Shown in pieces: positions 1-37,574 of a stretch of DNA of 64,000 nucleotides. Under the pieces are notes generated by a model. It was not told the origin of the DNA. It saw only the letters and a list, made by a program, of their open reading frames with translations, and made no database searches. Within the stretch, counting starts at the first letter, position 1; every line of letters begins with the position of its first letter. This DNA is from Streptomyces rimosus (GTDB taxonomy: Bacteria > Actinomycetota > Actinomycetes > Streptomycetales > Streptomycetaceae), in the NCBI RefSeq assembly GCF_008704655.1, contig NZ_CP023688.1, forward strand, positions 4,154,001 through 4,218,000. Reading direction: 5' to 3'. Both the position numbers and the translations under genes were made by a program.

Positions 1-144
1 GGGGAAGACCGTACGCAGGCTCTCGTGCCGGTCCAGTACGTCCACCAGGGCCGCGCGCAGGGCCGCCGGGTCGAGGCTGCCGCGCAGGCGCACCACGAGC
101 GGCAGGTTGTAGGTGGCGTTCGGGCCTTCGAGGCGGTTGAGGAA
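1..144 (-). pseudogene. Continuation of NRPS condensation domain 10 beyond an in-frame stop (partial)
   Basis: These 48 codons continue, in the same frame, the condensation domain that starts at the end of the NRPS gene at 145-12567. They read through NRLEGPNATYNLPLVVRLRG and on to ESLRTVFP, which matches the equivalent stretch of condensation domains 2 and 6 (e.g. RIEGPSATYN...ESLRTVFP). The frame is open to the window edge, so the rest of module 10 and any thioesterase lie outside. The stretch is separated from the upstream 4,140 codons only by the TAA at 145-147. It has no start codon or ribosome binding site of its own in view, so it is probably untranslated if the stop is real. Confidence 0.85.

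Positions 145-37574: not shown

What the first reader, a model, noticed from the sequence alone, without database searches (positions are those of the whole stretch)
1..37574. Predicted polycationic, D-rich acyl peptide
Nine complete modules plus a tenth begun. Pocket readings give basic-basic(D)-basic(D)-Phe(D)-Thr-Asn(D)-basic(D)-basic(D)-Thr-..., with five Orn/Dab-like positions. E domains, GGDS carriers and C-domain types agree at every step. I cannot match this order to a peptide I know (polymyxins and brevicidine share features, not the order). A strongly cationic acyl peptide suggests membrane or lipid-II/LPS-type targets.
Basis: partly seen in the sequence, partly recalled or inferred. 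Interest (0 to 1): 0.8.

Follow-up and report, generated by a model that had tools for sequence, protein, structure and literature searches.

The report
Manikomycin antibiotic assembly-line genes
The giant enzymes read here match those published in 2026 as the makers of manikomycin, an arginine-rich antibiotic that blocks bacterial ribosomes; what seems unreported is that the cluster carries parts for adding and then removing a fatty tail, and that this strain's copy contains a stop codon.

Summary
In detail: nine complete peptide-synthetase modules plus a tenth begun, with epimerase, carrier and condensation types agreeing throughout. DNA left of the window adds the rest of module 10 and the thioesterase. 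The interpretation needs correcting. The genome is a Streptomyces rimosus, and module order, stereochemistry, five basic pockets (module 3 differing at two code positions) and an FtsJ-type methyltransferase match the published manikomycin (man) cluster (Nature 2026, PMC13372681). Residues 2-10 as a lactone with free N-terminus compute to m/z 592.331, against 592.33 published. The basic residues are Arg (Orn or Arg at position 3). The published product carries no acyl tail, does not permeabilise membranes and binds the ribosomal E-site. Two points I did not find in the paper's main text: module 1 starts with a lipid-starter-like condensation domain, and a PvdQ-type secreted acylase lies beside the exporter, suggesting an N-acylated precursor that is trimmed later. 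Here the second synthetase gene has an in-frame TAA inside module 10, absent from the one close relative found, so this strain may be a non-producer unless the stop is an assembly error.

The parts
12564..37655 (-). First NRPS (ManA-type), modules 1-6: C-A-T, C-A-T-E, C-A-T-E, C-A-T-E, C-A-T, C-A-T-E. GTG at 37655, in-frame ATG at 37574
36249..37553 (-). Module 1 condensation domain, lipid-starter-like; HHLVMDGFTG puts Gly at the acyl-length position (RzmA R148, counted without a gap)
   Evidence: same motif in the relative; control shows the PDB ranking alone does not discriminate
34626..36086 (-). A1, code DTDDVGFVD (Arg in manikomycin)
   Evidence: product
31428..32888 (-). A2, code DSDDVGFVD (Arg)
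   Evidence: product
26757..28217 (-). A3, code DTDDSGCVD, two code positions different from A1/A7/A8 (Orn or Arg)
   Evidence: paper
22137..23597 (-). A4, code DAWTIGAVC (Phe)
17514..18974 (-). A5, code DFWNVGMVH (Thr, ring hydroxyl)
14310..15770 (-). A6, code DLTKVGEVG (Asn)
145..12567 (-). Second NRPS (first part of ManB type), modules 7-9: C-A-T-E, C-A-T-E, C-A-T, then the start of C10
9694..11154 (-). A7, code DTDDVGFVD (Arg)
   Evidence: product
5065..6525 (-). A8, code DTDDVGFVD (Arg)
   Evidence: product
502..1962 (-). A9, code DFWNVGMVH (Thr)
145..147 (-). In-frame TAA early in the tenth condensation domain; it separates modules 7-9 from module 10 and the TE
   Evidence: the relative's frame is open here
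1..144 (-). Start of the piece after the stop (rest of C10); C10-A10-T-TE continues to G000:C1:4150245, outside the window
38201..39931 (+). ABC exporter (membrane plus ATPase), divergent from the first NRPS; probably the published ManD transporter (naming inferred)
   Evidence: (97% identical in the relative)
39906..42437 (+). PvdQ-type N-terminal-nucleophile acylase with signal-like N-terminus; nucleophile Ser codon at 40695; ORF overlaps the exporter gene
   Evidence: homology with the fetched stretch of the relative ends at this stop codon

Best explanation
This is the manikomycin (man) cluster of a Streptomyces rimosus. Two synthetases of six and four modules build Arg-D-Arg-D-Orn/Arg-D-Phe-Thr-D-Asn-D-Arg-D-Arg-Thr-His, and the thioesterase closes a lactone between Thr5 and residue 10. 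[quoted passage not shown] the FtsJ-type methyltransferase protects the producer's ribosome (published for strain WAC 7405, not shown by me). Inferred here, with less confidence (about 0.55): module 1's starter condensation domain puts a medium or long acyl chain on Arg1, and the secreted PvdQ-type acylase removes it during or after export. Further trimming gives the nine-residue form, which carries no acyl. In this assembly the second synthetase is cut by a stop codon, so the line is probably not working in this strain unless the stop is an assembly error. The confidence below is for the identity with the man cluster.
For: Module count 6+4, six E domains, and Arg at modules 1, 2, 3, 7 and 8, with module 3 differing in two code residues, in the paper and in the sequence. 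The in-genome streptobactin cluster has a related pocket, DADDVGLVD; that this pocket takes Arg rests on recall of streptobactin's structure. Residues 2-10 as lactone compute to 592.331 against published 592.33. Among 35 sets of four basic residues x 16 tenth residues x 2 release forms, one other fit within 0.01 was found, a linear peptide. An FtsJ-type methyltransferase, 340 aa from its ATG, fits ManE. The species fits: 98 of 106 condensation-domain starts lie inside the listed NRPS clusters of S. rimosus ATCC 10970, among them those of cluster 24 here. Maturation: starter-like C1 with Gly at the length position, acylase with Ser1/His23/Val70 and N/R in place, exporter-acylase pair kept in the relative and homology ending at the acylase stop, precedents PvdQ, Tem25, GdnD.
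Against: I could not align the DNA with the WAC 7405 contigs, and the paper's gene table is in a supplement I could not read. The paper does not mention acylation or an acylase in its main text. The PDB ranking of C1 does not separate lipid from aryl starters: the streptobactin C1 gives the same order. PvdQ-type acylases were found in 28 of 61 genomes of the genus (26 besides the two man genomes), and this genome holds a second copy, so the link rests mainly on position. The stop codon argues against a working pathway in this strain.
Confidence: 0.93

Rival explanations
1. The starter domain is a relic and acylation plays no part: the line starts from free Arg, and general peptidases make the nine- and eight-residue forms. 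The acylase is a neighbour with another job, such as quorum quenching or detoxification.
For: Relatives of the acylase, 45-49% identical, were found in 26 of the 59 other genomes searched, and the eight listed relatives outside S. rimosus have no matching exporter within their roughly 1.5 kb flanks. A 67 kb man clone makes the product, but the parts I read do not test the acylase.
Against: C1 keeps an intact HHxxxDG motif in both genomes. dN/dS over the first synthetase is 0.21, and 0.23 over its first 1000 residues. The acylase keeps its place beside the exporter in both genomes; Ser, His23, Val70 and the Asn motif were seen in both, the Arg was checked only in this one.
Confidence: 0.3
2. 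The acylase serves self-protection by inactivating an acylated, more toxic form, as suggested for GdnD and Tem25, rather than activating a prodrug.
For: The glidonin paper raises this role for GdnD and Tem25 and calls their natural function unresolved.
Against: The non-acylated manikomycins are the active antibiotics and self-resistance is assigned to ManE.
Confidence: 0.15
3. The mature product is an N-acylated lipopeptide acting on membranes, lipid II or LPS.
For: Five basic residues and a lipid-starter-like C1.
Against: The published ion fits an unacylated lactone, and the paper reports no membrane permeabilisation and a ribosomal target.
Confidence: 0.02
4. The stop codon is an assembly error and the second synthetase is a single four-module protein in this strain too.
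For: The piece after the stop is under similar constraint (dN/dS 0.27 against 0.21 for the first synthetase and 0.19 for the end of the second), and the relative's frame is open. How G000 was sequenced is not known to me.
Against: It is a clean in-frame TAA with no frame change. No product is listed for cluster 24 of ATCC 10970, though low yield could explain that.
Confidence: 0.35

Closest known systems
Manikomycin (man) cluster of S. rimosus WAC 7405 (PMC13372681)
   Same: Six plus four modules, six E domains, Arg at 1, 2, 3, 7, 8 with module 3 off by two code residues, lactone mass, transporter, FtsJ/RlmE-type rRNA methyltransferase
   Different: This assembly has a TAA inside module 10. 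The paper's main text does not discuss a lipid starter or an acylase
BGC 24 of S. rimosus ATCC 10970 (PMC9045324, PMC13098539)
   Same: Listed at 4147387-4194710, where this NRPS lies in G000; NRPS, 'mannopeptimycin (22)', no metabolite
   Different: The published chromosome is 9,365,899 bp and G000 is 9,361,154, so they are different assemblies. If the coordinates correspond here, the listed right border falls inside the acylase gene (G000:C1:4193906-4196437)
Pyoverdine/PvdQ, telomycin/Tem25, glidonin/GdnD (passages of PMC10587159)
   Same: Acylated peptide whose fatty chain is removed by an acylase; PvdQ is an Ntn hydrolase and GdnD is PvdQ-like
   Different: Different peptides. Here the removal is inferred, and the major product also lacks residue 1. 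No sequence comparison with Tem25 or GdnD was made
Brevicidine, laterocidine (passages of PMC6095874)
   Same: Cationic peptide with a linear basic segment and a Thr lactone ring
   Different: Those keep the acyl tail and have Orn and a hydrophobic ring; here Arg, a cationic ring, a ribosomal target

Membership tests
Manikomycin (man) cluster | Two NRPSs of six and four modules with a C-terminal TE | tested here: met
   but the four-module gene is split by a TAA in this assembly
Manikomycin (man) cluster | Six E domains giving D at 2, 3, 4, 6, 7, 8 | tested here: met
Manikomycin (man) cluster | Arg pockets at modules 1, 2, 3, 7, 8, module 3 with two code changes | tested here: met
   substrate itself not assayed
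Manikomycin (man) cluster | Product mass of the nonapeptide lactone | tested here: met
   Computed 592.331 against 592.33; His at module 10 is taken from the paper, not predicted by me
Manikomycin (man) cluster | RlmE/FtsJ-type rRNA methyltransferase ManE | tested here: met
   PF01728 in L001:14014-15219, ATG at 15036; activity not tested
Manikomycin (man) cluster | DNA identity with the WAC 7405 cluster | not testable with these tools
   Accession JBPBLP000000000 was not compared
Manikomycin (man) cluster | Production by this strain | not testable with these tools
   No metabolite listed for BGC 24 of ATCC 10970
Acylase-matured lipopeptide (PvdQ/Tem25 type) | Lipid-initiating starter C domain | tested here: inconclusive
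   best matches RzmA and CDA starter domains, but control one search gives the same order; Gly at the length position
Acylase-matured lipopeptide (PvdQ/Tem25 type) | Secreted Ntn-hydrolase with catalytic Ser and partners | tested here: met
   signal peptide judged by eye, partner residues recalled from PvdQ
Acylase-matured lipopeptide (PvdQ/Tem25 type) | Removal of the acyl chain from this peptide | not testable with these tools
   Needs a mutant or enzyme assay
Cationic lipopeptide antibiotics (polymyxin/brevicidine type) | Acyl tail kept in the mature product | tested here: not met
   Published ion fits no acyl group

The most novel reading that the evidence does not exclude
Manikomycin is made as an N-acylated ten-residue precursor ('pro-manikomycin') and becomes the ribosome inhibitor only when a dedicated PvdQ-type acylase encoded beside the exporter strips the acyl end outside the cytoplasm, with loss of Arg1 giving the main nine-residue form. 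This would be a second layer of self-protection besides ManE.
Probability: 0.55. Interest if true: 0.6.

Novelty: already known. Interest (0 to 1): 0.35.

Why it matters
[quoted passage not shown] An acyl-precursor step would explain why a ten-module line yields mainly nine residues and why a starter-type C domain heads a line whose product has a free N-terminus. It also matters for moving the cluster to other hosts, since the border listed for BGC 24 appears to cut through the acylase gene. The stop codon, if real and shared by ATCC 10970, would explain why no product of this cluster is listed for that strain.

Tried and rejected
Orn/Dab reading of the basic pockets: the in-genome longicatenamycin region has a different code of basic type (DVSEVGSVE, substrate by recall), while the streptobactin pocket is nearer. 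The A-domain tree (75 sequences) puts the five basic A domains and their counterparts in one clade (0.994) inside a wider clade that also holds a domain of code DANQAGFVD from the longicatenamycin region, so clade membership alone does not prove 'basic'. The first alignment read position 239 as Trp (DTWDVG...); with more sequences it reads Asp.

Siderophore reading: Pfam scans of the neighbouring ORFs that I chose named no dihydroxybenzoate or ornithine-hydroxylase family; not every ORF was scanned.

Paper searches for code letters returned only unrelated papers or nothing, except one Orn/Lys-type code in PMC12283262. The plasmid search found partial matches in 98 records, none covering 80% of the query. 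The protein search with the end of the second ORF scored 1475 candidates; the 120 listed were at most 71% identical and none was named S. rimosus, so strain-level evidence on the stop was not obtained. The manikomycin paper came up only in the last paper search.

Papers: sections 5, 9, 11, 16 and 50, the abstract and passages of PMC13372681; passages only of PMC9045324, PMC13098539, PMC11097637, PMC10587159, PMC7804268, PMC6095874, PMC12236907, PMC12283262 and PMC13126170; supplementary files not read. The statement that acylation is not in print rests on word searches of the main text of PMC13372681 ('acyl', 'acylase'; 'starter'; 'peptidase', 'protease') and of its preprint ('acyl', 'acylase', 'amidase', 'starter'), and on paper searches.

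Full report
What is in the sequence. The minus strand carries an NRPS ORF of 8363 aa (12564-37655) and a second of 4140 aa (145-12567). A condensation-domain search of the whole genome placed the domains and showed that the window is G000:C1:4154001-4218000 of a 9,361,154-base single-contig genome. Reading the motifs in order gives ten modules, with E domains in modules 2, 3, 4, 6, 7 and 8, GGDS carriers in exactly those six, and the post-E type of C domain in the six places where it is expected.

The tenth module. The second ORF ends at an in-frame TAA at window 145-147, early in the tenth condensation domain. Left of the window the frame continues with the rest of C10, then A10, T and a type I thioesterase, followed by MbtH, a type II thioesterase, an FtsJ-like methyltransferase (340 aa from its ATG), an F420_oxidored-family protein and a TetR regulator. 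The piece after the stop is 92% identical to the relative with dN/dS 0.27; the first synthetase has 0.21 and the end of the second 0.19. The relative's frame is open across this point. The stop is therefore either recent or an assembly error; I cannot tell which.

Which organism. Of 106 condensation-domain starts in G000, 98 lie inside the listed NRPS clusters of S. rimosus ATCC 10970; the eight others lie on the right arm, 55 to 4,887 bases outside the nearest border. The published ATCC 10970 chromosome has 9,365,899 bp and was built from PacBio and Illumina reads, and two other assemblies of that strain exist. G000 is thus S. rimosus, either another assembly of ATCC 10970 or a near relative. 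Cluster 24, listed at 4147387-4194710 with 'mannopeptimycin (22)' and no metabolite, is this NRPS.

The close relative. G048 contig 31 has the same length, 118291, as contig31.1 of S. rimosus subsp. rimosus NRRL WC-3904. It has ten adenylation domains in the same order; nine of ten nine-letter codes are identical and A8 differs at one position. Its modules 7 and 8 contain frame breaks in the draft.

What it makes. A 2026 paper (PMC13372681; sections read) describes manikomycin from S. rimosus WAC 7405: ManA with six and ManB with four modules, Arg-activating modules 1, 2, 3, 7 and 8, module 3 with two changes in its code and Orn or Arg in the product, a lactone between Thr and the C-terminal His, a transporter ManD and an rRNA methyltransferase ManE. 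Here the codes are DTDDVGFVD (A1, A7, A8), DSDDVGFVD (A2) and DTDDSGCVD (A3), so A3 differs from A1 at exactly two positions. Residues 2-10 with Orn at 3 and His at 10, closed as lactone with a free N-terminus, compute to m/z 592.331 for [M+2H]2+; the paper gives 592.33 for MKM-A. I would not have called A10 (DTWTIASVD) His without the paper.

How it works. In the paper the peptide does not permeabilise or disrupt the bacterial membrane, and resistant mutants point to uptake by the peptide transporter SbmA (passages). It binds the 50S E-site and hinders translocation, and ManE methylates C2395 of 23S rRNA at the 2'-OH to protect the producer. These are published results, not tested here.

What the paper leaves open. 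A line whose product has a free N-terminus should not need a condensation domain in module 1. C1 scores best against 7c1k (297 bits; RzmA starter domain by recall, supported by PMC7804268 and PMC10587159 passages) and CDA (246), ahead of ObiF1 (226) and EntF (197). The control, the first C domain of the streptobactin cluster in the same genome, gives the same order (232, 213, 175, 172), so this ranking is weak evidence. At the acyl-length position (RzmA R148, where shorter side chains go with longer chains) C1 has Gly, counted without a gap from the HHxxxDG motif, in both genomes.

The acylase. Next to the exporter, and overlapping it, lies an 843-aa ORF of the penicillin-amidase family whose best solved relatives are 5c9i ('protein related to penicillin acylase', 443 bits; MacQ by recall) and PvdQ (441 bits). 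The nucleophile Ser, His23, Val70 and the later Asn and Arg are in place (residue roles recalled). The N-terminus looks like a signal peptide (by eye). The exporter is 97% and the acylase 85% identical in the relative. Nucleotide homology between the window and the fetched stretch of the relative ends at the acylase stop codon, while the window goes on to genes such as a DNA topoisomerase. Against a special link: acylases of this family were found in 28 of 61 genomes, 26 of them besides the two man genomes, and this genome holds a second copy at 8018609-8020873, so it could be a general secreted enzyme. In the eight listed relatives outside S. rimosus no exporter homologue was found within the roughly 1.5 kb flanks held.

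Inference. PvdQ, Tem25 and GdnD remove the fatty chain of acylated peptides (passages of PMC10587159, which calls the natural function of GdnD and Tem25 unresolved). I propose the same here, with loss of Arg1 giving the main nine-residue form. The words 'acyl', 'acylase' and 'starter' do not occur in the main text of the manikomycin paper or its preprint; the supplements were not read. If coordinates correspond at this point, the listed right border of cluster 24 (4194710) falls inside the acylase gene (G000:C1:4193906-4196437), which may be why it was overlooked.

Verdict. What may be new is the acyl-precursor model and the interrupted gene in this assembly.

Noticed in passing
G000:C1:8018609-8020873 (minus): A second PvdQ-type acylase, 48% identical to the one beside the manikomycin exporter; a similar copy lies on G048 contig 159.
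   Followed up: no
window 39906-42437: The acylase ORF has TTA codons at zero-based codon positions 2 and 39 from its first possible start, while both synthetase ORFs and the exporter have none; this could mean bldA control of the acylase only, if the true start lies upstream of them.
   Followed up: no
G048:C31, A7 and A8 of the second synthetase: The draft of NRRL WC-3904 has frame breaks in modules 7 and 8, perhaps collapsed repeats.
   Followed up: partly
L115:17455 (longicatenamycin cluster region): An adenylation domain of code DANQAGFVD falls inside the otherwise basic-looking clade, a warning for substrate calls by clade.
   Followed up: no
G000:C1:2350167-2351468: A condensation domain in the cluster 22 region also shows one in-frame TGA in this assembly.
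   Followed up: no
L126:379 (minus): One distant acylase relative lies near an adenylation-domain motif.
   Followed up: no
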